NCBI RefSeq assembly: GCF_001565895.1 | Contig: NZ_LSNE01000009.1 | Location: 430,451 to 486,971 of the forward strand | Source of the DNA: Paraglaciecola hydrolytica | GTDB taxonomy: Bacteria > Pseudomonadota > Gammaproteobacteria > Enterobacterales > Alteromonadaceae | DNA: 56,521 bases | Direction of reading: 5' to 3' | Part shown: positions 2,700-20,913 of the stretch, piece after piece | How the letters are laid out: every line of letters starts with the position of its first letter | Position numbering within the stretch: position 1 is the stretch's first letter | Translations under genes and position numbers: made by a program | Notes under the pieces: model-generated | The model's database searches: none | The model's input: only the letters and a program-made list of their open reading frames with translations | Told to the model about the DNA's origin: nothing

Positions 2700-3744
2700 T
2701 ATTCAACTTGGCCACATCACTATTGGGCCTAGCCATACTCCGTTTATTATTGCTGAGCTTAGTGGTAATCATAGTCAGCAATTAGACTTAGCTATTGCCA
2801 TGGTTGAAGCTGCAGCTAAAGCCGGTGTTCACGCAATTAAATTGCAAACCTATACCGCAGATAGCATGACCTTGGATGTGGATACTGCCGACTTTGTAAT
2901 CAAAGAACAAAACAGCCTGTGGCACGGTGAGAAACTCCATGCCTTATATCAAAAAGCCGCCACGCCCTATGAGTGGCACAAGGTATTATTTGATAAGGCC
3001 AAATCCTTGGGTATGTTGGCCTTTAGTTCACCTTTTGATGAAGCAGCAGTGGATTTTCTCGTTGACTTAGACGTGCCCTGTTTTAAAATTGCCTCCTTCG
3101 AATTAACCGATTTACCCCTTATTCGCAAAGCTGCGTCCAAGGGTAAACCACTGATCATGTCGACCGGCATGGCATCTTTGAGTGAAATCGAAGAAGCCGT
3201 CACTACAGCTAAACAAGCGGGTTGTTCAGACATTATTTTACTCAAGTGCACTAGCACCTATCCGGCAGAGCCGACCAATACTAATTTATTGACCATCCCC
3301 CATTTAGCTCAGGCTTTTGGCTGTCAAATAGGTTTGTCTGATCACACGGCTGGCATAGGCGTATCGGTTGCTGCTGTGGCTTTAGGTGCGACAGTGATAG
3401 AAAAGCATTTTGTACTGGATCGCAGTGCCGGTGGGGTTGATGCCGCGTTTTCATTAGAGCCTCACGAACTCACGGCCTTAGTGACAGAAACCGCGCGAGC
3501 GCAACTCGCTATGGGGCAAGTCGTTTATGGTGGCACCGTCGCCGAAGAAAAATCCAAACAATATCGTCGTTCTATTTATGTCGCTAAAGACATGCAAGCC
3601 GGTGAAATATTTAGCGCAGACAACTTACGTATCGTCAGGCCTGCCTTTGGTCTGGCTCCTAAACACTGGGATTCCGTCATCGGAAAAACAGCTAAAACAG
3701 CACTTAAAAAAGGCACAGCGCTGAGCTGGCAGTGGATAGCCTAA
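2692..3744 (+). CDS. pseI: Pseudaminic acid synthase
   Basis: PseI condenses 2,4-diacetamido-2,4,6-trideoxy-L-altrose with phosphoenolpyruvate to give pseudaminic acid. The protein has a NeuB TIM barrel (about residues 15-260; PFIIAELSGNH, SSPFDEAAVDFL, KIASFELTD, STGMAS, KCTSTYP, GLSDHTAG, VIEKHF) and a C-terminal SAF antifreeze-like domain (SIYVAKDMQAGE to the end). The ATG at 2692 overlaps the previous gene by 8 bases (ATGCTTGA), the same geometry as pseF and pseH. An ATG at 2677 would add five residues and cannot be excluded. The barrel matches PseI rather than the second synthase at 18661, which is built differently. Confidence 0.92.
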   Translation: MLDIQLGHITIGPSHTPFIIAELSGNHSQQLDLAIAMVEAAAKAGVHAIKLQTYTADSMTLDVDTADFVIKEQNSLWHGEKLHALYQKAATPYEWHKVLFDKAKSLGMLAFSSPFDEAAVDFLVDLDVPCFKIASFELTDLPLIRKAASKGKPLIMSTGMASLSEIEEAVTTAKQAGCSDIILLKCTSTYPAEPTNTNLLTIPHLAQAFGCQIGLSDHTAGIGVSVAAVALGATVIEKHFVLDRSAGGVDAAFSLEPHELTALVTETARAQLAMGQVVYGGTVAEEKSKQYRRSIYVAKDMQAGEIFSADNLRIVRPAFGLAPKHWDSVIGKTAKTALKKGTALSWQWIA

Positions 3745-3769: not shown

Positions 3770-4825
3770 GTGTTAATAACTAAGGTGGTATTTCGGGTTG
3801 ATGCCAGTAGTAGCATGGGCATGGGGCATCTGTTACGTTGCCTGGCCTTAGCACAGGCATTAGATCAACACCCAGCGGTTAAGGCAATAATTTTTGTTAT
3901 GTTGGCTGCATCAAAGCCTTTCGCCAAAAGCCGCACGGATTGGGTAGGCGACATCGTGATTTTACCCGCTGATTTACCACAACAAGCCGAGCCACAATGG
4001 TTAAGTGATTTTTGCCAGCGTCAGCAAGTTGATGTGCTTGCGCTCGACGGTTATCAGTTTGATGCTGATTATCGTCAGGCTCTTTCGAGTATTCCCAGCG
4101 TGTTTGTTTTGTTTGATGACATGAATAATTCTGGCGATTTATATTGTGATTTAGTGATCAACAGCGCCAGTAATGCTGATGCCTTGGAGTATCAAAGTAC
4201 AGCCCCTCAAGCTAGTTTATGTTTGGGTGACAAGTATCGGATCTTACGCCGTGAATTTGTGCAAAAGGACTATTGTTTGCCTTGGGCTGAACGTGATGGT
4301 TTGGTCGTGGTGATGGGCGGTAGCGATCCTTTTAATGTAAGTTTGCAAATCTTACAGACTTTAGAACAACATAAATTTAGCCACCAGATTAAACTCGCTA
4401 CCGGCGGTGCTTATGCACATCACGCTGAGCTAGGGGCTTTTTTAACACAGACAAACTTGCAAGTGGAACATTTGCAAAACTGCCAACAGATGGCGCAGTT
4501 ATTTGGTGAGGCCAAATTAGTGATTTCGGCCGCGGGTGGTAGTCAGTTTGAGTTACTTGCCTGCCAGAGTCCGGCCTTGTTAGTGATAGTGGCGGCTAAT
4601 CAGCGCAATGCCACGCAAGCCGCAGCTAAACAAGGTTGGTGTCAGGCAATAGATTATTGTGCCAAGCCTGATATCGCCGAGCTGGCGCAACGAACCTTGC
4701 AACTATGGCAACAAGACTTATTGTTAGAACAGATGTTTCAAACCGCAGGGCAATATGCTGATACTGCAGGGGCAGAGCGTGTGGTGACTGAGATCTTAAA
4801 GCGAGTTGAGACTAACCATGCCTAA
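3770..4825 (+). CDS. pseG: UDP-2,4-diacetamido-2,4,6-trideoxy-L-altropyranose hydrolase
   Basis: PseG removes UDP from the 2,4-diacetamido sugar nucleotide to give the free sugar used by PseI. The 351-residue protein has the GT-B-like PseG fold. The N-terminal RVDASSSMGMGH loop ends in His20, which aligns with the catalytic histidine of Campylobacter PseG. FVLFDDMNN and CDLVINS follow, and the C-terminal half has VISAAGGSQFELLACQSP, the UDP-binding side. The start is GTG at 3770, chosen because the conserved VVFRVDAS strand begins just after it. The stop overlaps the ATG of pseH by 8 bases. Function is well supported by motif and order. Confidence 0.9.
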   Translation: MLITKVVFRVDASSSMGMGHLLRCLALAQALDQHPAVKAIIFVMLAASKPFAKSRTDWVGDIVILPADLPQQAEPQWLSDFCQRQQVDVLALDGYQFDADYRQALSSIPSVFVLFDDMNNSGDLYCDLVINSASNADALEYQSTAPQASLCLGDKYRILRREFVQKDYCLPWAERDGLVVVMGGSDPFNVSLQILQTLEQHKFSHQIKLATGGAYAHHAELGAFLTQTNLQVEHLQNCQQMAQLFGEAKLVISAAGGSQFELLACQSPALLVIVAANQRNATQAAAKQGWCQAIDYCAKPDIAELAQRTLQLWQQDLLLEQMFQTAGQYADTAGAERVVTEILKRVETNHA

Positions 4826-5384
4826 TAAATTACTGACACAATTGCAAGGCTATCAGGTCAGGCTTGATGCTGTTACCCAAGATGACTTGGAGATGATCCG
4901 CCAGTGGCGCAATGATCCCTCGGTCGCCCAGTTTATGTTGTCGCAAGAAAGTATTTCAACAGAGCAACAACAGGCGTGGTTTAAAAAAATTAGCCGCGAC
5001 TTTAGCCAACAGCATTTTGTGATTTTTTATAAAAACGAAGCCATAGGTGTGGCCAATATCAAAGCCTATTATCAGGGTGAAACTTTAGATAATGCCCGAG
5101 TGATCGAGCCTGGTTTGTATATCGCCGATAACCGTTATCGCAACAATATTTTAGCCTTCGCACCAACGTTAGTGCTTAACGATTATTGTTTTGAGGTACT
5201 AGGCGTACAAGCTTTGCTGGCAGTGGTTAAAGCCGATAATTTGGCTGCTTTAAATTACAATACTAAACTGGGCTATCAAATTGAAAAACAAGCCGAATTA
5301 GTTGAAATCAGACTTAATCAAGCCGATTATCAGCATCATACTCATGGGCTAAAGGCTTTATTAAATCGGCCTGCCAGAAGTTAG
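4818..5384 (+). CDS. pseH: PseH-type GNAT N-acyltransferase
   Basis: A GNAT-fold acyltransferase of 188 residues. PseH acylates the 4-amino group of the altrosamine sugar nucleotide, normally with acetyl-CoA, between PseC and PseG. Visible features are LDAVTQDDLEMIRQWRNDP at the N-terminus, the central IGVANIKAY strand and the C-terminal NLAALNYNTKLGYQ acyl-CoA-binding and dimer segment. The ATG at 4818 is preferred over an in-frame TTG at 4806 because it gives an 8-base overlap (ATGCCTAA) with pseG, repeating the local pattern. An acyl carrier protein follows 25 bases downstream, so a non-acetyl acyl group from the next four genes could be the donor. That idea is inference. Confidence 0.85.
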   Translation: MPNKLLTQLQGYQVRLDAVTQDDLEMIRQWRNDPSVAQFMLSQESISTEQQQAWFKKISRDFSQQHFVIFYKNEAIGVANIKAYYQGETLDNARVIEPGLYIADNRYRNNILAFAPTLVLNDYCFEVLGVQALLAVVKADNLAALNYNTKLGYQIEKQAELVEIRLNQADYQHHTHGLKALLNRPARS

Positions 5385-5409: not shown

Positions 5410-5652
5410 ATGCAAAATTTGGAAAAACTGAGCAAGGCCTTTACCGAGAGTTTGGGTATAGAGCCACAACAAGTTAGTGATACTCTGACCTATAACAGTA
5501 TCCCGCAGTGGGATTCTACCGCCCACATGATCCTAATCGCGGAAATTGAGAATGCATTTAACTTAATGCTCGATACTGACGATATTATTGATATGAGTTC
5601 TTTTGCCCAAGCTAAAGCTATTTTGGCAAAATACGAAATCGATTTTAATTAG
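5410..5652 (+). CDS. Acyl carrier protein
   Basis: An 80-residue acyl carrier protein. The 4'-phosphopantetheine site is Ser36 in QWDSTAHMILIAEIE, with Thr in place of the common Leu after the serine. Helix II and an acidic helix III (LDTDDIIDM) are recognisable. This is not the housekeeping AcpP: it lies outside a fab cluster and is followed by an AMP-forming ligase and LuxE/LuxC homologues. It probably carries the acyl intermediate for that pathway. V. cholerae O1 has an equivalent dedicated ACP in its tetronate gene set. The ATG follows the sequence AATAAGAGAC, a reasonable ribosome-binding region. Confidence 0.85.
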   Translation: MQNLEKLSKAFTESLGIEPQQVSDTLTYNSIPQWDSTAHMILIAEIENAFNLMLDTDDIIDMSSFAQAKAILAKYEIDFN

Positions 5653-5698: not shown

Positions 5699-7153
5699 AT
5701 GTTTTTGAACAACAACGAACCTCGATCAGCCACGACGGATATTATGCCTGTTTCTCAGTTTTTCTTTGATAATCTAGCGCGCTACGGCGAGGCACCGGCT
5801 GCTATCGAAGGTGAGTTGCAAGTCAGTTACCAGCAGTTGCAGGTGCGTTGTGCAGAATTTAGCCAGCAACTAAATCAAATAAACAAGCAGACAAATAGTC
5901 CGCAAAAACAGCTTATCTTCCTCAAAGCGCATAATAATATTGCTACTTTAGTCGCTTATTTAACTACCTTGCAAAACCGCCATGCTGTGTTGTTGCTTGA
6001 CCCCGATATTGACCAATCTAAGCTCGATAAACTGATTGCAAGCTACCAGCCTAATCTGCTCATCGACTCGCAGACTATTGAGCAATGCCATAGTAAACCA
6101 CTGGTTTTAGAGTCAAAACTGGCCTTGTTATTATCAACCTCAGGCAGCACAGGTTCGGCTAAACAGGTGTGTTTAAGTGCCGATAATGTGCAGGCTAATG
6201 CCCTGTCTATTGTTGAATATTTGCCGTTGTTAGCCAGCGACAAGACCATCACTACCTTGCCGTTTTATTATTCTTACGGTTTGTCGGTGCTTAACAGCCA
6301 TTTGTTAGTCGGTGCCTGCATCGTATTTAACCAACATTCGTTAGTCAGCCGTGAATTTTGGCAGTTATTTAAACAGCATAATATCAACAGCTTTGCTGGT
6401 GTGCCGCAGAGTTATGAGATGTTGTTACGCCTGCGCTTTGAGCGCATGGATTTGCCCAGTTTGCGTTATTTTACTCAGGCCGGTGGTAAGTTGGCAGCGG
6501 ATAAAATCCAGCCACTTGCTCGTTACGCTAACGCCAACGACAAACAGTTTTTTGTGATGTACGGCCAAACCGAAGCCACTGCACGTATGGCTTACCTTAA
6601 AAGTGAATTATGTGAGACTAAACCTCACGCCATTGGCCAAGCTATTCCTGGAGGGCAATTTAGTTTGCACGATGAGCATGGTGAGTTGATTACTCAGCCT
6701 GAAGAAAGTGGAGAGCTGATTTATCGTGGGACTAACATTATGTTGGGTTACGCCAATTGCTTAAGCGACTTGACTGAGTTTACACCCTTAAACGAACTTG
6801 CCACCGGCGATATTGCCTATCGGGATAGCGAAGGTGACTATGTTATCTGTGGTCGAATAAAACGTTTTATTAAACTTTTTGGTTTGCGTATCAATCTAGA
6901 TGAAGTCGAAACTCTGTTGGCTAATAAAGGCCTTGAGTGTTATTGCCTAGGCGATGATACTAAGTTGCTGGTGGCACTTACAAATGACGTTGTCGCCCAA
7001 CAGCATATTGATATCAATGAACTAAAAATGTGGCTGAGCAGGGAGTTGCAAATTAATCACAACGTAATCAATATCAAACCAGTAGCGCAGCTACCTTTAA
7101 CCAATAATGGTAAAAAGGACTATCCGGCTGTGCTAACGATGCTGGACGATTGA
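5699..7153 (+). CDS. AMP-forming acyl-ACP/acyl-CoA ligase (RfbL-like)
   Basis: The 484-residue protein belongs to the adenylate-forming (ANL) superfamily. Core motifs are in order: A3 STSGSTGSAK at 146-155, A5 MYGQTEATARM, ELIYRGTNIMLGY, A7 TGDIAY, A8 GRIKRFIKLFGLRINLDEVE, and the catalytic lysine region NNGKKDYP close to the C-terminus. It should activate a small carboxylic acid as the acyl-AMP and load it onto the ACP encoded just upstream. The ACP-ligase-LuxE-LuxC order recalls RfbL and its neighbours in V. cholerae O1 tetronate synthesis. An internal ATG at 5747 (MPVSQFF) is an alternative start. The acyl substrate cannot be inferred from sequence. Confidence 0.82.
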   Translation: MFLNNNEPRSATTDIMPVSQFFFDNLARYGEAPAAIEGELQVSYQQLQVRCAEFSQQLNQINKQTNSPQKQLIFLKAHNNIATLVAYLTTLQNRHAVLLLDPDIDQSKLDKLIASYQPNLLIDSQTIEQCHSKPLVLESKLALLLSTSGSTGSAKQVCLSADNVQANALSIVEYLPLLASDKTITTLPFYYSYGLSVLNSHLLVGACIVFNQHSLVSREFWQLFKQHNINSFAGVPQSYEMLLRLRFERMDLPSLRYFTQAGGKLAADKIQPLARYANANDKQFFVMYGQTEATARMAYLKSELCETKPHAIGQAIPGGQFSLHDEHGELITQPEESGELIYRGTNIMLGYANCLSDLTEFTPLNELATGDIAYRDSEGDYVICGRIKRFIKLFGLRINLDEVETLLANKGLECYCLGDDTKLLVALTNDVVAQQHIDINELKMWLSRELQINHNVINIKPVAQLPLTNNGKKDYPAVLTMLDD

Positions 7154-9544: not shown

Positions 9545-10846
9545 ATGTCAAAAGTAGTCTATGTCGGCATGAGTGCAGATTTGGTTCATCCGGGCCATCT
9601 TAATATCCTCAAAGAAGCAGCCAAACTCGGTTCGGTCACAGTAGGCTTATTAACCGATCAGGCCATTGCCAGTTACAAACGTGTGCCTTTTATGGAGTTT
9701 GAACAACGCAAACTTGTGATTGAAAGCATTAAAGGCGTTGATAGGGTGGTGGCACAAACCACCTTAGATTATTCGCCTAACCTTGAATTACTTAAACCTG
9801 ATTATGTGGTGCATGGTGATGATTGGCGCGAAGGTGTGCAGAAAAAAACTCGCCAGAAGGTAATTGATTGTTTAGCCCAGTGGGGCGGTGAGTTAGTCGA
9901 AGTGACTTATACCCAAGGTATTTCGTCTACCCAGTTACATCGTGCGATGAAAGAAATTGGCACCACTCCGCAAATTCGCTTGAAATCTTTAAAACGCTTG
10001 TTAGCGGCTAAGCCTTTGTTACGCTTTTTGGATATCCATAATGCCTTGTCGGGTTTGATCATCGAAAATACCAAAGTGCAAACCGAGCAAGGAATGCAGG
10101 AATTTGATGGCATGTGGGGCAGCAGTTTGACCGACTCCACAGCTAAAGGTAAACCGGACATTGAAGCGGTTGACGTGTCTTCACGTATGGGCACCTTAAA
10201 CGAAGTGCTCGAAGTAACCACTAAACCGATTATTTATGACGGTGATACGGGTGGTAAAACCGAGCATTTTGTTTTTACCGTAAAAACCCTTGAAAGACTC
10301 GGTGTATCCGCAGTGATCATCGAAGATAAAACCGGTCTTAAAAAGAATTCGCTGTTTGGTACTGATGTTGAACAAACTCAGGACAGCATCGAAAACTTCA
10401 GCCTTAAAATTCAAGCTGGAAAAGCCGCTCAGGCGACCAATGATTTTATGATCATTGCCCGAATTGAAAGTTTAATATTGGGGCAGGGGATCGATCACGC
10501 ATTGGAACGAGCGCAAGCATTTTTAAACGCCGGAGCCGATGGCATTATGATCCACAGTCGTGAAAAATCCCCCGATGAAATTTTTGAATTTTGTGATCGT
10601 TACAGCCAAATCGACAACAAAAAAACCTTGGTTGTAGTGCCATCCAGCTTTAATTCAGTATACGAATCGCAGTTGCAAGAAAAAGGCGTAAACGTGGTGA
10701 TCTACGCTAACCAATTATTACGCAGTGCTTATCCAGCCATGGTTAATACCGCTCAGTCTATATTGCAACATGGTCGCTCTGCCGAAGTGGACAAACTGAT
10801 GATGCCCATCAAACAAATCCTTGAATTGATACCCGGAGGAAAATAG
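9545..10846 (+). CDS. Fused cytidylyltransferase-PEP mutase (Fom1-like)
   Basis: The 433-residue protein has two domains. Residues 1-135 are a glycerol-3-phosphate-cytidylyltransferase-type nucleotidyltransferase with HPGH at 15-18 and ISSTQ at 126-130. Residues about 155-430 are PEP mutase: DGDTGG at 232-237 and the hallmark [10 protein letters not shown] at 260-269, which separates true mutases from isocitrate lyases and PEP hydrolases. PEP mutase makes the C-P bond, turning PEP into phosphonopyruvate. The same domain order occurs in Streptomyces Fom1, whose N-terminal domain cytidylylates 2-hydroxyethylphosphonate in fosfomycin synthesis. The decarboxylase and dehydrogenase genes follow directly. 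The mutase call is very firm; the CMP acceptor is inferred. Confidence 0.93.
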
Positions 10847-11970
10847 TGATCCAGCCACAGCAGTTTTGTGACATTTTGCTAAACCACGGCATCGATTTTT
10901 TTTGTGGTGTGCCGGATTCCTTATTAAAAAACCTCTGTGCCTATGTGGATGATAACTTTGCTGCCAGTCAGCACATTATCACCGCCAATGAAGGTAATGC
11001 AGTCGCTTTAGCAACTGGCCATTATTTGGGCTCGGGTAAGGCGGCCATGGTGTATATGCAAAACTCCGGTTTGGGCAATGCCATCAATCCTCTTACCTCT
11101 TTAGCTGATCCTCAGGTATACAGTATTCCCATGTTATTGGTGGTGGGCTGGCGCGGTGAACCTGGTATTAAAGACGAACCCCAGCACGTCAAACAGGGGC
11201 AAGTTTCCGAGCAGCAATTAGCGATATTGGATATTCCTTATGTGGTGTTGGATAGCAGTTCTGATCTCACTCATGTCTTACCCAATTTGTTAAACACCAT
11301 GACAGCACAAAACCGTCCTGTGGCCCTGCTTATCCGCGCAGATTGTTTTGCAGCTTACAAAAGTAAGAGCAAGACTACTTCAGCTTATAAAATGCAACGT
11401 GAACAGGCTTTAGGCATTTTGTTGAATATGTTTGCCCCGAGTGATGTGGTGGTGTCCACAACCGGTAAAACTTCCCGTGAAGTTTTTGAGCTCCGTAAGT
11501 CACAAGGTCAGTTGTGCAGTGATTTTTTAACCGTGGGTGGCATGGGGCATACTTCATCTATTGCCCTAGGAGTGGCATTAGCAAAATCAGATAAAAGAGT
11601 CATTGCCATTGATGGTGATGGCTCAATGTTAATGCATCTGGGCGCTGTGCCCATTATTGGTTGCCATGGCCCAACTAATTTAGTGCATATTGTTTTAAAT
11701 AATCAAAGCCATGAATCGGTGGGCGGGCAACCTACTATTGCAGGCAAAATTGACATCGGACAAATCGCTCTAGCCAGTGGTTATAAAGCCTACTGGTGTG
11801 TGGATGATGAAACCGCTCTACAAGCCATTTGGCCGCAAGTCAGTGCGAGTAATGGACCGGTGATGTTGGAAGTTAAAATCGCCATTGGTTCGCGGGATGA
11901 TCTGGGCCGACCTACGAGTACACCGATTGAAAACAAACAGGCTTTTATGTCCCATACTGGTAGCCTGTGA
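10846..11970 (+). CDS. Phosphonopyruvate decarboxylase
   Basis: A 374-residue thiamine-diphosphate enzyme that decarboxylates phosphonopyruvate to phosphonoacetaldehyde, the irreversible step that drives the unfavourable PEP mutase reaction. The N-terminal half has FFCGVPDSLLKNLC, the cofactor glutamate in TANEGNAVALATGHYLGSG and MQNSGLGNAINPLTSL, all typical of phosphonopyruvate decarboxylase. The C-terminal half has the ThDP motif IDGDGSMLMHLGA (about 254-266) through LNNQSHESVGGQPT. The GTG start has a strong GGAGG seven bases upstream and shares one base with the mutase stop. Length matches Fom2-type enzymes. Sulfopyruvate decarboxylase is related, but the neighbouring PEP mutase settles the choice. 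Confidence 0.93.
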   Translation: MIQPQQFCDILLNHGIDFFCGVPDSLLKNLCAYVDDNFAASQHIITANEGNAVALATGHYLGSGKAAMVYMQNSGLGNAINPLTSLADPQVYSIPMLLVVGWRGEPGIKDEPQHVKQGQVSEQQLAILDIPYVVLDSSSDLTHVLPNLLNTMTAQNRPVALLIRADCFAAYKSKSKTTSAYKMQREQALGILLNMFAPSDVVVSTTGKTSREVFELRKSQGQLCSDFLTVGGMGHTSSIALGVALAKSDKRVIAIDGDGSMLMHLGAVPIIGCHGPTNLVHIVLNNQSHESVGGQPTIAGKIDIGQIALASGYKAYWCVDDETALQAIWPQVSASNGPVMLEVKIAIGSRDDLGRPTSTPIENKQAFMSHTGSL

Positions 11971-13055
11971 TGATGCATTGGCAGCAAATCCAACAGCAAT
12001 TTAATATCAGCGAGACAGATGATTTTATCTCACTGTTGACTGATTTACTGCCCCCCGGTAATACCCTGATAATAACCAGCGCCGGTTTTACCCGTCGAGG
12101 TCTGAGCCAAAAAGTTCTTGATCGTTTGCCGACTGATTGCGTGCTGTTATGCGACGAGATCACTCCCAATCCCGAATTGCTTGATTTACAACGCTGGGCG
12201 CAGCGGTATCAGCAAAATGAGATCAGCAATATTATCGCACTTGGTGGTGGCTCGGTGATCGACAGTGCCAAGGTATTGTGTGCGATGTTATCGCAACCTC
12301 ACTTAAGTTTGATGGAGTTACTCGCGTCGAGCAATCCAGTCAATAATCTGCATCTTATTGCGATTCCAACGACCTCTGGCACCGGTGCTGAAGTCACGCC
12401 TTTTTCTACTGTTTGGGACAGTGCCGCCGTTAAAAAATATTCATTAGTGGGTATCAGTGCGGATAAGATTATCTTAGATGCCAGCCTGACTTTATCCTTG
12501 CCACATCAGCAAACTTTATATCCCGCTTTAGATGCACTGTCTCACGCCCTAGAATCATTGTGGAATAAAAACCGCACTATAAGCAGTGCAGATTATGCCG
12601 TTCAGGCGATTGAGGCTATTTGTCAGGCCTTGCCAGCAGTGCTCAAACAAAGTGATGATTTTGCTGCGCGCCAGACTTTGCAACGTGCTGCGTCCTTAGC
12701 GGGGCTGGCTATTTGCCAGACCCGTACCGCCATTGCCCATGCAATATCTTACCCGCTAACCGCCGCTTATGGCGTGCCTCACGGTCTGGCCTGTAGTTTT
12801 ACCTTGGCGGCTATTATCAAAGAAGTAGGATCAGAGCAATTAAACTTATCGGTGGCGTTGGTCGATAAAGTATTAAATTTACTTAAATCCCTTGCTCTGG
12901 ATAGTGAAATGGCCAAATTTGTTAGTTGGCAGATTTTACTCGAACAATTTGATCCAGCCTTAGATCCAGCCAGAGCAAGTAACTTTATATTAGAAATTCA
13001 TGCTGCTTTGGTTGGTAGATTGATTACCCAAAGTCATATCTCAGCAGCGCTGTAG
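11970..13055 (+). CDS. Iron-type alcohol dehydrogenase, probable phosphonoacetaldehyde reductase
   Basis: A 361-residue group III (Fe-dependent) alcohol dehydrogenase. It has the nucleotide-binding GGGSVIDSAK (about 92-101), IPTTSGTGAEVTPFS, and metal-ligand segments DALSHALESLW and AHAISYPL...GVPHGLACS. Coupled directly to the decarboxylase, it most likely reduces phosphonoacetaldehyde to 2-hydroxyethylphosphonate, as FomC and PhpC do. No 2-aminoethylphosphonate transaminase is visible, which supports the alcohol route. The alternative is a role like RfbM in tetronate synthesis, with the LuxE/LuxC pair upstream. Start codons GTG 11967, ATG 11970 and ATG 11973 all touch the upstream stop; 11970 (TGATG) is chosen. 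Confidence 0.87.
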   Translation: MMHWQQIQQQFNISETDDFISLLTDLLPPGNTLIITSAGFTRRGLSQKVLDRLPTDCVLLCDEITPNPELLDLQRWAQRYQQNEISNIIALGGGSVIDSAKVLCAMLSQPHLSLMELLASSNPVNNLHLIAIPTTSGTGAEVTPFSTVWDSAAVKKYSLVGISADKIILDASLTLSLPHQQTLYPALDALSHALESLWNKNRTISSADYAVQAIEAICQALPAVLKQSDDFAARQTLQRAASLAGLAICQTRTAIAHAISYPLTAAYGVPHGLACSFTLAAIIKEVGSEQLNLSVALVDKVLNLLKSLALDSEMAKFVSWQILLEQFDPALDPARASNFILEIHAALVGRLITQSHISAAL

Positions 13056-13075
13056 GCTTTAGTTAGGAAGGTATC

Positions 13076-13993
13076 ATGAAAATTCGCACGTTATTGTTTG
13101 GTGCTGGCCCTGGTGCTCTTGTCTATATGGAAAACACCGCAGAACAAAGAGAATTTGTTGGCTTTTTAGATAACGATCAGGCTAAACATGGCAAACATTA
13201 TCATGGTTTGTTGATTTATCCCCCTGCCTCAATCAATACACTGCAATTTGACCAAGTGGTTATTACCACCCAGTGGGCCTTGGCGGTGCAAAAACAACTG
13301 TTAGAAGAACTTGCTGTACCTGACTCCAAAGTATTATTGCCAGAAAAAAACAAACTCAAAAAGATCACCCCTTTTGTCCAACCTGATGGCATGGCACTGG
13401 GGCGCCAAATTGTAAAAAAAATTGCTGCACTGGCGCTAGATATGGACATTCCACTAGTCGCTGACTTTGGTACCTTGTTGGGCTTAGTCCGCGAGAAAGA
13501 CATTATTCAATGGGATGATGATATTGATTTTTCGATTAAAGATGGTTATGCGCTAGAAGTTGAACGTTTATTAATGCGTTTTGTTGAAGAAAGTGATAGC
13601 AAGCTCAAATGGCGTATCTTTAAAGCTAAAAGTGGCCAGGGCGAAATCACTGGCATGTGGTTAAAGTTTACCGATCCACAACAGAAATTAATCGAATTTA
13701 CCACTTCACTGTGTTTTAGACAGGTGAAAGACGACTTATCTTTGCATATGCCGAGTTTGGGTATGTGGTTTTCACCGCGCCAACATTTTGATTCGGTCGA
13801 GTATATCAACTGGCAAGATTGTACCATTCCGGTGCCATTTGATTATGCCAATTACCTGACCTTCCAATACGGTGACTGGCAAGTACCCAAAAAAGATATT
13901 CAGTTAAGTGATTATGCCAACCTGCGAGACGTTGAATTTAACGATATTAAGACCGCTAATCACTCTGCTGAAGCCATCTTGGAACAACACTGA
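13076..13993 (+). CDS. LicD-family transferase with an N-terminal Rossmann-like domain
   Basis: The 305-residue protein has two parts. The first 90 residues read as a small Rossmann-like domain (LLFGAGPGALVYM, VGFLDND, VVITTQW) of the kind seen at the start of sugar-modifying enzymes. From about residue 105 it is a LicD/nucleotidyltransferase-fold protein: GTLLGLVR at 132-139, the metal-binding WDDDID at 146-151, and LTFQYGDWQVP near the C-terminus. LicD proteins move phosphocholine from CDP-choline to a glycan. After a CMP-phosphonate pathway the natural reading is transfer of the phosphonate ester group to a sugar. The family call is firm; the donor is inferred from order. It follows the dehydrogenase by 20 bases with AGGAAGG ahead of the ATG. 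Confidence 0.83.
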   Translation: MKIRTLLFGAGPGALVYMENTAEQREFVGFLDNDQAKHGKHYHGLLIYPPASINTLQFDQVVITTQWALAVQKQLLEELAVPDSKVLLPEKNKLKKITPFVQPDGMALGRQIVKKIAALALDMDIPLVADFGTLLGLVREKDIIQWDDDIDFSIKDGYALEVERLLMRFVEESDSKLKWRIFKAKSGQGEITGMWLKFTDPQQKLIEFTTSLCFRQVKDDLSLHMPSLGMWFSPRQHFDSVEYINWQDCTIPVPFDYANYLTFQYGDWQVPKKDIQLSDYANLRDVEFNDIKTANHSAEAILEQH

Positions 13994-13996
13994 GAT

Positions 13997-15202
13997 ATGT
14001 CGCCAACACTATTAAGTCTATTAAAAAAAGTTGTTGTGGTATCACCTGATAATTTACCACTGCAACCTGCGATGTTATTTGGCAGTGGCGGTTTTGCTCG
14101 TGATTTAATAAACAAATATCACGGCAAAATAAGCGGTATGCTGGAAAGTGAAGCGCGCATTGAACGAGGCGATTTACCTAATCTGGGATACCCATGGCTA
14201 AGTCCGGATAACGCTGTTGGAAACATTCTTCTGGGGACTAGTGTCAGCGCCTACCAGCTTGAACAACTTCAATTATTAGCCGCCTCTGGCGCTGATAATA
14301 TAGAACAGATCTGGATTGCTGATCCTTACTTGAACGAGCGTAAACTGGCCAACATCGAAAGTGAAAAACGGATCTTGCTGATTGAACATGGCGCAGGCAT
14401 TAAGCGGCACTGGCAGCATCTAATTCAGTTCAGGCAATATTTTAACCAGCGCGGCTACACGGTTAGTTCGCTTTGTCCACTGATGTTGTATTCTTCCGAT
14501 GCTTATCGATTTGCAGCAGCGACTTTTATCTGGGGAGGCCAAAGAGATATTTATCGTATTGCCGACCCTTTGTTGCAAGGTATTAACCCGACCTATATAG
14601 AATATGGATTTTTCCCACAGTCTCAACATTATTATCTAGACAAAAAAGGGGTTAATCAGCACTGCTCATTAATGGATGATGATTTGTCTTGGGTGGATGA
14701 GCAACATCTTGGCAAGCTGGAACAAGTCAAAAGTGGCTTTTTACAGGGATACCGCCATCAATCTGCAGATTATGTGTTAGTACCCTTACAAGTGCCGGAC
14801 GATGCCAATATTATCAACTGCTGCCGCTTTACTAATGGCATGCAGGAATTTATTGATTATATTGTTAATTATTATCCGACGAGCCAGAAAATCATGTTTA
14901 AAGCCCACCCTAAAGATCCCAAGCAGCACACCTATAATTATCGTGGCAAACATCATTCGGATGAACCTTTTCTTGTATTGCTGCAACACGCTAAGCATGT
15001 ACATGGCATTACCTCCAGTACCCTATATGAAGCAGCGTTGGCGGGTGTCGATATTATTACCGAAGGGCTATCGTTGTTGTCGCGTCATCAAAATAATTTA
15101 ACCAAGTTATTTGCAGCTATGGTGGATAGGCAAGTCCCTGTATCTGAAAATAACCTAAAGTATTGGTTAGATCGCTATAGCTTTAGTCGGGTAAATGGTT
15201 AG
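13997..15202 (+). CDS. Capsule-type (KpsC/KpsS-like) glycosyltransferase
   Basis: The 401-residue protein has a C-terminal part resembling the capsule polysaccharide KpsC/KpsS (LipA/LipB) family: YVLVPLQVPDDANI, a phosphate-binding IMFKAHPKDP and HGITSSTLYEAALAG. KpsC and KpsS are Kdo transferases that use CMP-Kdo; this one could use a CMP-activated acid sugar from the island. The N-terminus has a Rossmann-like start (AMLFGSGGFARDLI, GMLES, NILLGTSVSAYQL) similar in plan to the preceding LicD protein. It starts three bases after that gene, so the pair is co-translated. Family assignment is moderate and based on motif pattern only; substrate and acceptor are unknown. It is the last gene of the compact block. 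Confidence 0.62.
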   Translation: MSPTLLSLLKKVVVVSPDNLPLQPAMLFGSGGFARDLINKYHGKISGMLESEARIERGDLPNLGYPWLSPDNAVGNILLGTSVSAYQLEQLQLLAASGADNIEQIWIADPYLNERKLANIESEKRILLIEHGAGIKRHWQHLIQFRQYFNQRGYTVSSLCPLMLYSSDAYRFAAATFIWGGQRDIYRIADPLLQGINPTYIEYGFFPQSQHYYLDKKGVNQHCSLMDDDLSWVDEQHLGKLEQVKSGFLQGYRHQSADYVLVPLQVPDDANIINCCRFTNGMQEFIDYIVNYYPTSQKIMFKAHPKDPKQHTYNYRGKHHSDEPFLVLLQHAKHVHGITSSTLYEAALAGVDIITEGLSLLSRHQNNLTKLFAAMVDRQVPVSENNLKYWLDRYSFSRVNG

Positions 15203-15240: not shown

Positions 15241-16008
15241 ATGCTTTGTAGTCAATGTAAACGAGAGGTTTCGCAAAGAGATAATTTTTGCAGTAATTGT
15301 GGAGATAAATTAAGCCCGCACTATGCAAATAATAGCTATCTCCCAGAGCTCCAAGAAGAATTTAGACACTTGCAGTTTTCCGGACAAGGCATGCAAAAAT
15401 TGCTAAACGATTATAATTTTGAAACTGTGTTAGATATTGGTTCTGGTGCTGGGCACCATACGGATCTTTTTATTAAGCATGGCAAACAAGTGACTGCCTT
15501 AGATTATGGAAAGTCTATCTACTTCGACAGACAGCAAAATGTTAAAAAATTACAAACGATTGTTGCAAACTTCAATGACTTTACGTTTGATCAGCAGTTT
15601 GACTGCATCTGGTGTTCGCATATTTTAGAACACCAACTAAATCCCCATTTATTTTTACGTAAAGTACATAGTTTGATTGTTCCAGGAGGCGTTTTAGCTA
15701 TTACTGTTCCCCCTCATAAAAATACTATAGTAGGAGGGCATGTTACGCTGTGGAATGCGGGAATATTACTTTATCAACTTGTTTTAGCTGGGTTTGATTG
15801 TAGCAAGGCGAGTATCCTTCGCTATGGCTACAACATCAGCATTATTTTAAATAAGAAAACTATCAATGTACTGGATAAGGTTGCTTATGATTCAGGTGAT
15901 ATCCGACTTTTAAGAGACTACTTACCAGAAAATCTTAACTTCTATCCAAAAGCCAATGACGATCCTTTTGATGGTGATATTTTTGAACTCAATTGGTTAG
16001 TAAATTGA
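15241..16008 (+). CDS. Class I SAM methyltransferase with N-terminal zinc ribbon
   Basis: The 255-residue protein starts with a small zinc ribbon, CSQCKREVSQRDNFCSNCG (Cys pairs at residues 3/6 and 17/20). A Rossmann methyltransferase domain follows with motif I VLDIGSGAGHHTDLF, DCIWCSHILEH and VPGGVLAITVPPHKN. Zinc-ribbon methyltransferases in surface-glycan clusters typically act on sugars or sugar nucleotides. The target here is unknown; a nonulosonic acid or its N-acyl group is a reasonable guess. GAGG precedes the ATG. The gene marks the switch from overlapping genes to spaced, more AT-rich ones. Confidence 0.75.
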   Translation: MLCSQCKREVSQRDNFCSNCGDKLSPHYANNSYLPELQEEFRHLQFSGQGMQKLLNDYNFETVLDIGSGAGHHTDLFIKHGKQVTALDYGKSIYFDRQQNVKKLQTIVANFNDFTFDQQFDCIWCSHILEHQLNPHLFLRKVHSLIVPGGVLAITVPPHKNTIVGGHVTLWNAGILLYQLVLAGFDCSKASILRYGYNISIILNKKTINVLDKVAYDSGDIRLLRDYLPENLNFYPKANDDPFDGDIFELNWLVN

Positions 16009-17083: not shown

Positions 17084-17158
17084 CAGTAATATGGAGTATT
17101 TTAATTTACTGCCTCATTTTGTCTTGCTAAGTCTTTTGAATGAAGTTGATTGTTAAAT

Positions 17159-17836
17159 ATGAATATTGTAGCCATTATCCCAGCCAGAGGCGGCTCAAAA
17201 GGTATTCCACACAAAAATATCAAACTTTTGGGTGGTAAACCTTTGATTTCTCATAGTATTGAGCAAGCAAAGCAAGCAGCATATGTTAGCGAAGTTTATG
17301 TCAGTACTGATGATCCGATTATCGCAGACTCTGCCAGTGAAGCGGGGAGTCAGGTCATTGTCAGACCGGAAATTTTGTCGGGTGATACAGCCAGTTCAGA
17401 ATCGGCCTTGTTACACGCATTAAACGAAATTGAGAAAAACCAGCATGTTGATTATGTGGTGTTTTTGCAATGTACCTCGCCGTTTAGAAGCTCTGCAGAC
17501 ATCGACGCTGCGATTGATATTATAAAGTCAGAAGACAGCGATTCTTTATTATCTGTTGTGACCAATCACCGATTTTTATGGCGTAAGACTGCAAACGGTG
17601 CTGAATCAATTAATTATGATTTTAACCACAGACCCAGACGACAGGATATGGACATTCAGTATATGGAAAATGGGTCGATATATATCTTTAAGCCCTGGGT
17701 GCTAAAAAAACTGGGAAACCGTTTAGGTGGCAAAGTGAGTATGTATGTAATGGATGAATACTCGGCTACTGAAATTGATTCGGAATATGATTTGACGCTT
17801 GCTCGGGCGATGTTTCAATCTCTGATAATTAAATAA
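17159..17836 (+). CDS. Second CMP-nonulosonate cytidylyltransferase (NeuA/LegF type)
   Basis: A 225-residue CMP-sugar synthetase with IIPARGGSKGIPHKNIK at the N-terminus, GKPLISHSIEQA, VYVSTDDP, CTSPFRSSADID and a C-terminal half with RPRRQDMDIQYMENGSIYIF and ATEIDSEYDLTLA. The RRQD...ENGSIYIF pattern is closer to NeuA/LegF than to PseF. It probably activates the product of the synthase at 18661. The ATG at 17159 is preferred to a TTG at 17150 because the conserved strand begins two residues after it. About 75 bases of non-coding sequence separate it from the GT42-like gene. The exact sugar (Neu-, Leg- or another nonulosonate) cannot be fixed here. Confidence 0.83.
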   Translation: MNIVAIIPARGGSKGIPHKNIKLLGGKPLISHSIEQAKQAAYVSEVYVSTDDPIIADSASEAGSQVIVRPEILSGDTASSESALLHALNEIEKNQHVDYVVFLQCTSPFRSSADIDAAIDIIKSEDSDSLLSVVTNHRFLWRKTANGAESINYDFNHRPRRQDMDIQYMENGSIYIFKPWVLKKLGNRLGGKVSMYVMDEYSATEIDSEYDLTLARAMFQSLIIK

Positions 17837-17918
17837 AAAAGCAGGTTCACGTAAAAAAATGTTATTGGTTTAACTCAGAATTTTGCGTGCTTTGTCAGCT
17901 TTGGTTTAGGTTTATAAT

Positions 17919-18575
17919 ATGAAAAAAATTCTTGATTATCAGATGGATAATCCATTTGAATATGAAAATGGTTTCTATATCACTTCGCATCCCAGCCGAA
18001 TGGGAAAGCTCTTAGCTCACTATGAGTTGTATAAATTAATTACGCATTTACCGGGGCATATATTTGAGTTTGGTGTACATAAAGGCTGTTCGCTTATACG
18101 CTTTGCAACATTTCGTGAACTGCTTGAATCTCCTTATTCAAGAAAAATATACGGTTTTGATACTTTTACGTCTTTTCCTAAAACTGACAGTGATCTGGAT
18201 AATGGTTTTATCGATATGTTTGCCGAGGTGGCTGGTCAACCTATTTCTAAAGCTCAACTCATGGCATGTTTGGATTCTAAAAAACTGCTTAACATTGAAC
18301 TGATCGAAGGCAATATTCTGCAATCTCTGCCCGAATTTATTGCAGCAAGACCTGAAACAAAAGCGGCGTTAATTCATATCGACGTTGATGTTTATCAACC
18401 CAGTAAAGTGATTCTGGAAGAAATGGTAAAACGTATGGTTCCTGGTGGAATCATAGTTTTGGATGATTACGGTACAGTAGAAGGTGAAACCAGAGCGGTA
18501 GATGAGTTTTTTAATCATCACGCCAAAGTAGAAAAGCTACCTATCTCACATATTCCCTGTTTTATTCGGATTTAA
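17919..18575 (+). CDS. TylF/macrocin-type O-methyltransferase
   Basis: The 218-residue protein belongs to the TylF (macrocin O-methyltransferase-like) family, SAM- and Mg-dependent methyltransferases that modify sugars and also occur in glycan clusters. Visible are HIFEFGVHKGCSLIRFA (SAM motif), KIYGFDTFTSFP, the metal-binding ALIHIDVDVYQPSK, GGIIVLDDYG and GETRAVDEFF. A methylated nonulosonic acid or methylated outer sugar is the likely product. A second TylF gene on the other strand at 21616 shares the architecture but is longer. The gene stands alone between two gaps of about 80 bases. Confidence 0.78.
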   Translation: MKKILDYQMDNPFEYENGFYITSHPSRMGKLLAHYELYKLITHLPGHIFEFGVHKGCSLIRFATFRELLESPYSRKIYGFDTFTSFPKTDSDLDNGFIDMFAEVAGQPISKAQLMACLDSKKLLNIELIEGNILQSLPEFIAARPETKAALIHIDVDVYQPSKVILEEMVKRMVPGGIIVLDDYGTVEGETRAVDEFFNHHAKVEKLPISHIPCFIRI

Positions 18576-18660
18576 TTATTTGCGGCCGATATATATTCAT
18601 TCTAATTGTGACTTAATACCTGTTCTGTAGCCGCTTAAGTGCTGCTTAAAAAGGATAAAT

Positions 18661-20913
18661 GTGGTTGTAGATAAAGAAATATCGAAATATCTGGTTTTAA
18701 CTAATGAAACTATCACCAAGTCATTAGAAAAATTAAATCAGAATAAACTACAAATATTGTTTGTAGTTGATAGCCACGGGCGTTTGCGTGGTGCATTTAC
18801 TGATGGGGATTTTCGTCGCTGGGTATTAGAGCAGGCACAGATAAATCTTAATAACAGTGTCCAGGAGGTAATGAACCCCAACTGTCAGTCTTTCCTGGAA
18901 GATACCGATTTTTCCATTATTGAAGAGCACATCAACGACCGCGTTCGTTACGTTCCTTTATTAGATAATCGGGCCAAAGTCGTAGCGATTGCTTCTCGCC
19001 ATACAGGCGTGATTACCATTGGCAATTATGCGATCAGTAAATCGAGCGCCACTTTTATCATTGCTGAGATAGGTAATAATCATAATGGCAGTTTAATTAC
19101 CGCTAAAAGGCTGGTGGATGAAGCCGCCCAAGCGGGCGCCGATTGCGTTAAGTTTCAAATGAGGGACTTGCAAAACCTCTATGTTAATCAAGGCAATTCA
19201 AATTCCTTTGATGAAGATCTTGGTTCACAGTATGTATTGGATCTCCTAAGTAAGTTTCAACTAAAAGACGTTGAATTTGCTGAGATCATTAAATATTGTG
19301 AAACCAAAGGTGTTATACCGCTATGTACACCATTTGATAAAGAAAGCGCTGATAAACTAATACAAATGGGCATTTCTGCTTTTAAGGTAGCTTCAGCAGA
19401 TTTAACCAATCATCAATTACTTAAATATTTAGCAAAAAAACGTTTGCCGTTAATTGTTTCGACGGGCATGGCAACTGAAAATGAAATCAGAATTGCCACT
19501 GATTTATTGCGTTCAGAAGGTATCCGTTTTGTATTGTTGCATTGTAATTCGACTTACCCTGCACCATTTAAAGATATTAATCTGAATTACTTACCGCGTT
19601 TAGAGAAGTATTCCAATGCTCCAGTAGGCTATTCAGGACATGAGCGTGGGATCCACGTTGCGGTTGCTGCCGTGGCAATGGGGGCAAGGGTCATTGAAAA
19701 ACATTTCACACTAGATCGAAATCAGGAAGGCAACGATCATAAGGTAAGTTTGTTACCTGCAGAATTTAAAGAAATGGTACAGGCAATTCGTCAGATTGAA
19801 TTAGCTTTTGGTGAGGATACTCCGCGTAAATTGTCACAAGGTGAGATGATGAATCGCGAAAATCTTGCTAAGAGTATCGTGGCGCAGAAACCCATTCAGC
19901 AAGGTTGTAAGATTGAAGCTGGCATGTTGACAGTAAAAAGCCCTGGCAAAGGATTAGCTCCTTATTATATGGATCAACTCATTGGCCGTCCGGCAGTAAG
20001 GGATATTAAAGAAGGCGAGTTTTTGTTTCCCAGCGATATCAATGAAAAGTCACAGCAACTATCCAGAAATTACCGGTTTACTCAACCATTTGGTATTCCT
20101 GTTCGATACCACGATGTGGCCTTATCACTGCGTTCTAATTTTAAAGTGGTGGAATATCACTTTAGTTATAAAGATTTATTATTAAACCCACAAGACTATG
20201 TGGTTGAATGCAGATCCCAGAAGTTGATTGTGCATGCTCCTGAGCTCTTTGAAGGTGATCATCTGTTGGATTTAGCCAGTATCGATGAAGATTACAGGGC
20301 TTTATCAATAGGACATTTAAATCGGGTATTTGATTTAGTGCGAAAATTAAAAGTGTTTTATCCTGCCAGCCAAACTGTGCCTGTTGTTGTAAATGTTGGT
20401 GGGTTTTCCAGTGATCACTTTTTAAATGCGGATGAAAAACAACAACGATATGGATTATTTGTTGAAAGTTTGTCACAACTTAATTTGCAAGATATTGAGT
20501 TTATGATCCAGACCATGCCGCCTTATCCATGGCATTTTGGTGGGCAGCGTTACCACAATCTTTTTGTTGACCCAGATGAGATTGAACAAGTTTGCCAACG
20601 CTATAATTTAAAAGTGTGTTTGGATGTATCACATAGTTGGCTGGCGTGTAATGAATACCACTGGAAAATCGCAGACTTTTTTGAACGTATAGGAAAATAT
20701 GTACGACACCTTCATATTGCTGATGCTGCTGGAGTTGATGACGAAGGTTTGCAGATTGGTGAAGGAGAGATTAATTTTGCACAAATATTTCAATTAATGA
20801 ATGAACATTGCAGTGATGCTTCATGGATCCCAGAAATCTGGCAGGGTCATAAAAATCATGGCGAAGGCTTCTGGGATGCATTTGAAAAACTAGAATCAGA
20901 GGTTGTGCAATAA
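18661..20913 (+). CDS. Three-domain nonulosonate synthase: CBS pair, NeuB-SAF, TIM barrel
   Basis: The 750-residue protein fuses three units. Residues about 10-115 look like a CBS pair (ILFVVDSHGRLRGAFTDGDF, RYVPLLDN). Residues about 128-470 form a NeuB synthase with AEIGNNHNGSL, CVKFQMRD, CTPFDKESADKL, KVASADLTN, STGMAT, GYSGHERG and VIEKHFTLDR, followed by a SAF domain. Residues about 485-745 look like an AP-endonuclease-2/xylose-isomerase barrel (VCLDVSHSW, HLHIADAAGVDDEG, GEGEINFAQIF, WIPEIWQGH). The NeuB part should condense an N-acyl amino sugar with PEP; the last barrel may be a sugar epimerase or isomerase feeding it. The GTG start has AAGGA six bases upstream; the overlapping ATG reads into a stop. 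Its end overlaps the opposite gene by 18 bases. Confidence 0.82.
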   Translation: MVVDKEISKYLVLTNETITKSLEKLNQNKLQILFVVDSHGRLRGAFTDGDFRRWVLEQAQINLNNSVQEVMNPNCQSFLEDTDFSIIEEHINDRVRYVPLLDNRAKVVAIASRHTGVITIGNYAISKSSATFIIAEIGNNHNGSLITAKRLVDEAAQAGADCVKFQMRDLQNLYVNQGNSNSFDEDLGSQYVLDLLSKFQLKDVEFAEIIKYCETKGVIPLCTPFDKESADKLIQMGISAFKVASADLTNHQLLKYLAKKRLPLIVSTGMATENEIRIATDLLRSEGIRFVLLHCNSTYPAPFKDINLNYLPRLEKYSNAPVGYSGHERGIHVAVAAVAMGARVIEKHFTLDRNQEGNDHKVSLLPAEFKEMVQAIRQIELAFGEDTPRKLSQGEMMNRENLAKSIVAQKPIQQGCKIEAGMLTVKSPGKGLAPYYMDQLIGRPAVRDIKEGEFLFPSDINEKSQQLSRNYRFTQPFGIPVRYHDVALSLRSNFKVVEYHFSYKDLLLNPQDYVVECRSQKLIVHAPELFEGDHLLDLASIDEDYRALSIGHLNRVFDLVRKLKVFYPASQTVPVVVNVGGFSSDHFLNADEKQQRYGLFVESLSQLNLQDIEFMIQTMPPYPWHFGGQRYHNLFVDPDEIEQVCQRYNLKVCLDVSHSWLACNEYHWKIADFFERIGKYVRHLHIADAAGVDDEGLQIGEGEINFAQIFQLMNEHCSDASWIPEIWQGHKNHGEGFWDAFEKLESEVVQ

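What the first reader, a model, noticed from the sequence alone, without database searches (positions are those of the whole stretch)
9545..13993. CMP-phosphonate pathway inside a flagellar glycosylation island
Seen: a fused HPGH cytidylyltransferase-PEP mutase (with [10 protein letters not shown]), phosphonopyruvate decarboxylase, an iron-type alcohol dehydrogenase and a LicD-family transferase in order and nearly contiguous, directly downstream of pseudaminic acid genes and upstream of flagellar genes. Known: Fom1 has the same fusion and its N-terminal domain cytidylylates 2-hydroxyethylphosphonate; LicD moves phosphocholine from CDP-choline. Inference: the cell makes CMP-2-hydroxyethylphosphonate and LicD places it on a flagellin or other surface glycan, giving a flagellar phosphonoglycan. 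I know of no described flagellin carrying a phosphonate.
Basis: partly seen in the sequence, partly recalled or inferred. Interest (0 to 1): 0.9.

Follow-up and report, generated by a model that had tools for sequence, protein, structure and literature searches.

The report
Flagellin-island cassette making CMP-activated phosphonate
A marine bacterium carries, inside the gene island that puts sugars on its flagella, a compact set of genes predicted to make a phosphonate (a stable carbon-phosphorus compound), activate it and hand it to a sugar chain, so its flagella may well wear a phosphonate, a decoration we found reported for one other flagellin only.

Summary
Window 9545-13993 encodes four intact, nearly contiguous genes: a Fom1-like cytidylyltransferase-PEP mutase fusion, phosphonopyruvate decarboxylase, Fe-alcohol dehydrogenase and LicD. 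They follow pse, ACP-like, AMP-ligase, luxE and luxC genes, resembling the Aeromonas polar-flagellin glycosylation island. A Maf gene and four flagellin genes lie just upstream; a fifth flagellin and fleQ lie downstream.

Comparison strengthens the idea. The fusion occurs in 18 of 395 sampled family genomes; 13 of the 17 relatives show pse, Maf or flagellin genes nearby. LicD co-travels: the 17 best LicD matches are all in fusion-positive genomes. In fusion-negative relatives LicD is instead paired with a TagD-like cytidylyltransferase in 19 of 47 loci, 14 of them at the corresponding island position, so the donor module looks exchangeable. The LicD model matches FKRP, a CDP-ribitol enzyme.

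Best explanation: CMP-2-hydroxyethylphosphonate is made and LicD puts the phosphonate on the flagellin glycan (0.6). The phosphonate's identity, the acceptor and flagellin as carrier are inferred. New is a dedicated, swappable phosphonate module in flagellin islands.

The parts
66..902 (+). pseC aminotransferase, C-terminal part (the gene starts left of the window)
   Evidence: PF01041; N-terminal part upstream
899..1618 (+). pseF, CMP-pseudaminic acid synthase
   Evidence: TIGR03584, 329 bits, cut-off 206
1611..2699 (+). possible glycosyltransferase (weak heptosyltransferase-III likeness) that recurs in relatives' islands
   Evidence: no Pfam; TIGR02201 22.5 bits, far below cut-off 170; recurs in relatives
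2677..3744 (+). pseI, NeuB-family synthase
   Evidence: PF03102 + PF08666
3770..4825 (+). pseG-like
   Evidence: PF04101 and position
4806..5384 (+). pseH-like GNAT acetyltransferase
   Evidence: PF13302 and position
5410..5652 (+). small acyl-carrier-protein-like ORF (80 aa), possible counterpart of orf1 of the Aeromonas island
   Evidence: translation read; named by eye and position, no family search
5699..7153 (+). AMP-binding acyl ligase, possible counterpart of orf3
   Evidence: PF00501
7155..8273 (+). LuxE-like acyl-protein synthetase
   Evidence: PF04443
8270..9469 (+). LuxC-like acyl-CoA reductase
   Evidence: PF05893
9545..10846 (+). cytidylyltransferase-PEP mutase fusion (Fom1-like): predicted PEP to phosphonopyruvate, and CTP + phosphonate to CMP-phosphonate
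   Evidence: PF01467 + PF13714, TIGR02320, [10 protein letters not shown], 5x3d match
10846..11970 (+). phosphonopyruvate decarboxylase
   Evidence: TIGR03297, 463 bits, cut-off 312
11967..13055 (+). Fe-alcohol dehydrogenase, predicted phosphonoacetaldehyde reductase
   Evidence: PF00465 + PF25137; nearest NCBIfam TIGR03405, below cut-off
13076..13993 (+). LicD/FKRP-type phosphotransferase with an N-terminal Rossmann-like domain (about residues 1-96)
13997..15202 (+). capsule-synthesis-type protein, possible glycosyltransferase or alternative transferase
   Evidence: PF05159, 30 bits, cut-off 20
15241..16008 (+). SAM methyltransferase of the glycan region
   Evidence: PF08241
16082..17083 (+). 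333-aa protein without an accepted family match, possible glycosyltransferase (guess)
   Evidence: nothing at 0.001 in Pfam or NCBIfam; one sub-threshold DUF5474 match
17150..20913 (+). second nonulosonic-acid set: NeuA-like (17150-17836), TylF-like methyltransferase (17919-18575), NeuB fusion with CBS and sugar-isomerase-like domains (18661-20913)
   Evidence: PF02348, PF05711, PF03102/PF01261/PF00571
23680..24483 (+). flagellin
   Evidence: PF00669 + PF00700
24679..28897 (+). fleQ (24679-26130) followed by fleS/fleR-type regulators
   Evidence: PF06490 + PF00158 for fleQ; the other two named from sequence and order

Best explanation
The island builds a pseudaminic-acid-based glycan on flagellin. 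The cassette adds a phosphonate to it: the PEP-mutase domain makes phosphonopyruvate from PEP, the decarboxylase makes phosphonoacetaldehyde, the Fe-ADH reduces it to 2-hydroxyethylphosphonate (HEP), the fused cytidylyltransferase makes CMP-HEP, and LicD transfers HEP from CMP-HEP to a hydroxyl of the glycan in the cytoplasm, releasing CMP and leaving a phosphonate ester. Shown here: gene content, intact motifs, recurring cassette, location in the flagellar island, predicted LicD fold, and pairing of LicD with a TagD-like donor gene instead in relatives. Inferred: each reaction, HEP as the product, LicD's acceptor, and flagellin as the final carrier.
For: Enzyme identities. pepM-ppd-FeADH in the same order in 17 of 17 family relatives. 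13 of 17 relatives have at least one pse gene or a Maf/flagellar gene in the first fetched stretch; luxC directly precedes pepM in 8 of 17 and a Maf gene in 1. LicD co-inheritance: the best 17 of 65 LicD-positive genomes all have the fusion; 14 of 15 fusion-linked LicDs fall in one supported set of 17 rows (100/98), 3 label changes against 13.5 in shuffles. In fusion-negative relatives LicD has a TagD-like cytidylyltransferase within 200 bp in 19 of 47 loci; in fusion-positive regions 0 of 17. The window genome has one LicD, one fusion and no TagD-like match at E<=1e-15. LicD's predicted fold matches FKRP, solved with CDP-ribitol. Flagellins and a Maf lie just upstream. The pse, ACP, AMP-synthetase, luxE, luxC content matches the Aeromonas group II island, where a gene downstream of luxC extends the pseudaminic acid on polar flagellin (PMC7874193 passages). 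A phosphonate on flagellin has one precedent (PMC8861647).
Against: No chemistry or expression data. Fe-ADH is below the PsrA cut-off. A PhnW aminotransferase exists elsewhere in the genome, so aminoethylphosphonate is not excluded. Four of 17 relatives lack pse, Maf or flagellar genes in the fetched stretch: one contig is 3.7 kb, one 15 kb, one has an SbcC-like gene upstream, and one is the divergent 69% copy. Four of 17 lack a same-strand LicD beside the cassette. G075 has the cassette with a LicD that groups with the TagD-linked ones, and one fusion-negative genome (G116) has a LicD inside the fusion-linked set. 16 of 47 fusion-negative LicD loci have neither of the two partner genes tested. 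Outside the family many named loci show no pse or flagellar gene near the cassette (maps of about half of the 80 printed). LicD's donor preference cannot be read from sequence.
Confidence: 0.6

Rival explanations
1. The same CMP-phosphonate and LicD decorate another surface glycan (LPS O-chain, capsule) rather than flagellin; the flagellar neighbours are only neighbours.
For: Most bacterial phosphonate capacity is ascribed to cell-surface tailoring (PMC6697681 abstract and passages); 13997-15202 has a capsule-synthesis domain; in other phyla the cassette lies in other contexts.
Against: No flippase or polymerase family among the ORFs scanned between 66 and 23437 (three of them, 1611, 16082 and 20896, had no family at 0.001, and ORF 5410 was not scanned); Maf and flagellins flank the island; 13 of 17 relatives keep the pse/flagellar setting. 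The rest of the genome was not searched for O-antigen genes.
Confidence: 0.2
2. The activated phosphonate is CMP-aminoethylphosphonate; PhnW from another locus aminates phosphonoacetaldehyde.
For: An above-cut-off PhnW is in the genome (TIGR02326 588 bits, cut-off 401); AEP is the phosphonate found on C. difficile flagellin.
Against: PhnW sits on another contig beside a GntR-type regulator and a transporter-like gene, which looks like AEP use (named by eye); Fe-ADH is in the cassette in 17 of 17 relatives; the cytidylyltransferase is PF01467/Fom1-like, not the PF12804 type shown to prefer AEP.
Confidence: 0.08
3. LicD is not the phosphonate transferase; the 13997 protein or another island enzyme is, and LicD uses a different CDP-alcohol.
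For: In two named relatives with pse or flagellin genes nearby a PF04464 transferase follows Fe-ADH (L087, L151); four of 17 relatives lack LicD on the same strand beside the cassette.
Against: LicD is next to Fe-ADH in 12 of 17; the window genome has no TagD-like match at E<=1e-15 to feed LicD otherwise; the LicD clade tracks the fusion. Other CDP-alcohol routes were not searched.
Confidence: 0.08
4. CMP-HEP is an intermediate of a secreted fosfomycin-like small molecule.
For: Fom1 has the same fusion and makes CMP-HEP in fosfomycin synthesis (PMC6697681 passages).
Against: No further small-molecule tailoring enzymes recognised among the neighbours scanned; LicD linkage and island setting. 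No dedicated search for a Fom3-type methylase was made.
Confidence: 0.02
5. The cassette is a silent remnant or has no product at the surface.
For: Patchy distribution, 18 of 395.
Against: The ORFs are open and the tested fusion motifs are intact here and in 16 of 16 long family copies.
Confidence: 0.02

Closest known systems
Fom1 (fosfomycin pathway) bifunctional cytidylyltransferase-PEP mutase
   Same: Same domain fusion and order; 87 of 136 N-terminal residues identical to 5x3d (that 5x3d is Fom1 is recalled)
   Different: Here linked to LicD and a flagellin island rather than to antibiotic genes
Phosphonyl tailoring (Pnt) pathways with PntC (PMC6697681)
   Same: PEP mutase with cytidylyltransferase and LicD-like neighbours, proposed to tailor cell surfaces
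   Different: PntC is LicC-like (PF12804) and prefers AEP; here PF01467 and a reductase instead of a transaminase; the word flagell does not occur in that text
Aeromonas group II polar-flagellin glycosylation island (PMC7874193)
   Same: pse genes, ACP, AMP synthetase, luxE, luxC and a variable glycan region; shown to build flagellin glycan
   Different: The region after luxC here holds a phosphonate cassette; orf2 is missing; that text has no hit for phosphonate or LicD
C. difficile type A flagellin glycan with 2-AEP (PMC8861647)
   Same: Phosphonate on a flagellin glycan
   Different: AEP not HEP, minor form, no pepM found in that species, source unknown
FKRP/LicD phosphotransferases
   Different: FKRP uses CDP-ribitol; donor here inferred as CMP-HEP; different N-terminal domain
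Marine phosphonoglycoproteins (PMC8931226)
   Same: pepM near protein-glycosylation genes, proposed phosphonate on protein-bound glycans
   Different: There via PglL-type transferases in Prochlorococcus and SAR11; here a Maf-type flagellin island

Membership tests
Fom1-type cytidylyltransferase-PEP mutase | N-terminal PF01467 fused to PEP mutase | tested here: met
Fom1-type cytidylyltransferase-PEP mutase | EDKX5NS and HxGH motifs | tested here: met
   window; both also in 16 of 16 long family copies (the cut copy in L038 not counted); in named loci 75 of 75 and 73 of 75
Fom1-type cytidylyltransferase-PEP mutase | Makes CMP-HEP | not testable with these tools
   needs an enzyme assay
HEP biosynthesis | Phosphonopyruvate decarboxylase | tested here: met
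   TIGR03297 above cut-off
HEP biosynthesis | Phosphonoacetaldehyde reductase | tested here: inconclusive
   Fe-ADH family met, TIGR03405 294 bits below cut-off 424
LicD phosphotransferase | PF04991 above gathering score | tested here: met
   35.6 against 22.6 bits, over 31 residues
LicD phosphotransferase | LicD/FKRP fold with conserved acidic motif | tested here: met
   predicted model
LicD phosphotransferase | Transfers a phospho-group from a CMP/CDP donor to a glycan | not testable with these tools
   needs an enzyme assay
Group II flagellin glycosylation island | pse genes with ACP, AMP synthetase, luxE, luxC | tested here: met
   (ACP by eye only)
Group II flagellin glycosylation island | orf2, 3-oxoacyl-ACP reductase | tested here: not met
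   only 46 bp lie between 5652 and 5699 and no such family was matched in the scanned island ORFs; many relatives have a 242-258 aa ORF there, not identified
Group II flagellin glycosylation island | maf gene with the pse genes | tested here: met
   PF01973, 105 bits, upstream of pseB; below the cut-off of NF050051 PseD
Group II flagellin glycosylation island | fgi-1 glycosyltransferase downstream of luxC | not tested
   no Fgi-1 sequence in hand
TagD (glycerol-3-phosphate cytidylyltransferase), relatives' alternative donor gene | TIGR01518 cut-off | tested here: not met
   156 bits against 165 for the one copy scanned (L175): called TagD-like only

The most novel reading that the evidence does not exclude
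Flagellin glycosylation islands of marine gammaproteobacteria have an exchangeable phospho-decoration slot, in which a LicD-family transferase is paired with whichever CMP/CDP donor module the cell has acquired; in this genome the module makes hydroxyethylphosphonate de novo, giving a flagellin phosphonate with its own biosynthetic genes, and one possible biological source of hydroxyethylphosphonate in marine dissolved organic matter.
Probability: 0.5. Interest if true: 0.82.

Novelty: new variant of a known kind. Interest (0 to 1): 0.7.

Why it matters
It would give a genetic handle on phosphonate-decorated flagella, where the one case I found (C. difficile) has no identified pathway. It makes the role of LicD-type enzymes in phosphonate transfer testable, and the TagD-like/PEP-mutase difference offers natural comparison pairs within one genus. 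Hydroxyethylphosphonate is named among the most abundant phosphonates of high-molecular-weight marine dissolved organic phosphorus (PMC8931226 passage); shed filaments would be a conceivable source (inference).

Tried and rejected
C-P lyase scavenging: PhnJ not found in the genome. Second PEP-mutase copy: of the two weak extra hits the C5 one lies in what looks like a methylcitrate-cycle locus (named by eye); the C3 hit was not examined. A 1229-aa ORF beside the cassette in L029, at first taken for a Maf, is SbcC-like. Promoter and terminator scans were near shuffle levels (29 found, 22.6 expected; 15 found, 10.5 expected); one 10-of-12 promoter-like site lies in the 75-bp gap before pepM, not interpreted. 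PDB sequence search of LicD gave only a weak N-terminal match, hence the structure prediction. A precedent for tagD in a flagellin island is one Geobacillus island (PMC5109656 passage). PMC4875605 (Enterobacteriaceae flagellin islands) had no hit for six phosphonate/LicD/glycerol terms; nothing else of it was seen. Rows dropped: the LicD tree used 59 proteins of 270-345 aa with over 75% coverage; other LicD hits were left out. In one search, of 80 named loci, LicD was near pepM (4 kb upstream to 7 kb downstream, either strand) in 26, PF04464-like in 24, both in 2, neither in 12; 11 without a hit had under 3.5 kb downstream and 5 had no full fusion ORF. Six of the 52 positives also had under 3.5 kb, so the even-handed count is 46 of 58. 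The two profiles were built partly from these same loci, and some LicD hits may match only the N-terminal Rossmann-like domain, so these counts are descriptive. The 14 island-position TagD pairs were counted by eye from the maps. Not in print: searches of the held PMC library only, of which 13, 38 and 64 listed only part of what they found (25 of 38, 15 of 17, 15 of 99).
Full report
OBSERVATION. 9545-10846 is a fusion of a cytidylyltransferase-like domain and a PEP mutase (PF01467, PF13714; TIGR02320 400 bits over a cut-off of 320), carries [10 protein letters not shown], and its N-terminal domain is identical to 5x3d at 87 of 136 positions; that 5x3d is the Fom1 domain is recalled. The decarboxylase passes TIGR03297. 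The Fe-ADH is a clear family member but stays below the cut-off of TIGR03405. LicD passes Pfam over a short stretch only.

SETTING. The window lies in a 5.2-Mb genome. Left of it are FlgK, FlgL, four flagellins, FlaG, FliD, FliS, a 1191-aa Maf-type protein (PF01973, 105 bits) and pseB (apart from the PF00669 and PF01973 hits these are named by eye; of the six PF00669 hits one is FlgL by eye and one is the window flagellin). Then come pseC, pseF, a possible glycosyltransferase, pseI, pseG, pseH, an ACP-like ORF, an AMP ligase, LuxE, LuxC, the phosphonate cassette, further glycan genes including a second nonulosonic-acid set, a flagellin and fleQ. The Aeromonas group II polar-flagellin island has pse genes, ACP, a reductase (orf2), AMP synthetase, luxE and luxC plus a variable region; Fgi-1, encoded downstream of luxC, adds the first sugar to the pseudaminic acid on flagellin, and some glycan residues there are phosphorylated (PMC7874193, passages only). 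orf2 is missing here, so I call this island similar, not a strict member. Maf-dependent glycosylation in A. caviae occurs in the cytoplasm (PMC4065374, abstract), where CMP-HEP and LicD would be expected.

DISTRIBUTION. In 395 genomes drawn evenly from the family, 18 have the fusion at E<=1e-60, the window's own included. I read up to 20 kb around the other 17. pepM-ppd-FeADH is present in 17 of 17; LicD is the next gene on the same strand in 12 (one cut by a contig end), directly precedes pepM in one, and is opposite or farther off in four; in one of these four (L034) a 423-aa ORF follows, and the like-looking named locus L151 has PF04464 there. 13 of 17 have at least one pse gene at 45% identity or a Maf/flagellar gene at 40%; 11 have two or more kinds of pse gene. 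The four without are a 3.7-kb contig, a 15-kb contig, a copy beside an SbcC-like gene, and the most divergent copy. For one relative counted on Maf alone (G341) the adjoining stretch holds the pse genes and flagellins (L208).

EXCHANGE OF DONOR MODULE. The LicD protein has a match (E<=1e-10) in 65 of 395 genomes; the 17 best are all in fusion-positive genomes, and the 18th fusion-positive genome (G075) has an adjacent but distant LicD. I read one LicD locus for each of the 47 fusion-negative genomes. In 19 a TagD-like cytidylyltransferase lies within 200 bp of LicD; in 12 others an ATP-grasp gene; 16 have neither; 33 of 47 have at least two kinds of pse gene nearby. None of the 17 fusion-positive regions has the TagD-like gene. 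Of the 19, 14 are at the corresponding island position downstream of pse genes, nine of them with the order LuxC-LicD-TagD (by eye); the others are opposite-strand pairs, a contig end or a rearranged island. The window genome has no TagD-like match at E<=1e-15. On a tree of 59 LicDs, 14 of 15 fusion-linked ones fall in a supported set of 17 rows; the other three rows are two LicDs from fusion-positive genomes lying farther off (G387, G338) and one from a fusion-negative genome (G116); the 15th, G075, falls among the TagD-linked ones. I read this as one decoration slot with interchangeable activated donors. The TagD-like protein misses the TIGR01518 cut-off narrowly (one copy scanned), so CDP-glycerol there is itself a guess.

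BEYOND THE FAMILY. A LicD or PF04464-like gene (CDP-glycerol:polyglycerophosphate transferase family) lies near pepM in 52 of 80, or 46 of the 58 that have a full fusion ORF and at least 3.5 kb downstream (limits of this count under Tried and rejected). In Aliidiomarina celeris (L087) and Pseudidiomarina planktonica (L151), which have pse or flagellin genes nearby, PF04464 follows Fe-ADH. In Marinospirillum alkaliphilum (L083) a sulfotransferase-like gene follows. So CMP-phosphonate plus phosphotransferase looks like a wider pattern, with flagellar use the local speciality.

WHICH PHOSPHONATE. Gene content argues for HEP: a reductase, no transaminase in the cassette, and a Fom1-type domain. 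Against certainty: the Fe-ADH cut-off, and a PhnW elsewhere (588 bits, cut-off 401) beside a regulator and transporter-like gene. PhnJ was not found.

NOVELTY. Phosphonate cell-surface tailoring through CMP-activation is known (PMC6697681, abstract and passages), protein-bound phosphonoglycans are proposed in marine bacteria (PMC8931226, passages), and one flagellin with a phosphonate is known (PMC8861647, passages). In the held PMC library my searches listed no paper whose title or abstract start describes a pepM pathway in a flagellin island; three of the lists were cut short, I opened only seven papers, and most subscription papers are not held. Hence: a new variant of a known kind.

VERDICT.

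Noticed in passing
left edge of the window (pseC): pseC is split in this assembly by a run of G followed by unread bases, just outside the window; the two parts match about residues 1-70 and 110-381 of intact relatives. Most likely an assembly gap or sequencing artefact; a phase-variable tract is not excluded.
   Followed up: partly
L221:2730-3830 (G000 contig C18): PhnW 2-aminoethylphosphonate transaminase above cut-off, with a GntR-type regulator, a transporter-like gene and a HAD-IB hydrolase: a probable AEP-use locus in the same genome.
   Followed up: partly
16082-17083: 333-aa protein with no accepted Pfam or NCBIfam match inside the island; a candidate unknown glycosyltransferase.
   Followed up: partly
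L159-L168, L194, L204: A third island type: pseI-LicD followed by an ATP-grasp and a HAD-like gene, in most of these loci beside flagellin and fleQ; what its LicD transfers is unknown.
   Followed up: partly
18661-20913: NeuB-type synthase fused to a CBS domain and a sugar-isomerase-like domain in one 750-aa protein.
   Followed up: no
20896-21615: Weak phytanoyl-CoA dioxygenase-like protein (PF05721 19 bits, below cut-off 22) among the glycan genes, on the minus strand.
   Followed up: no
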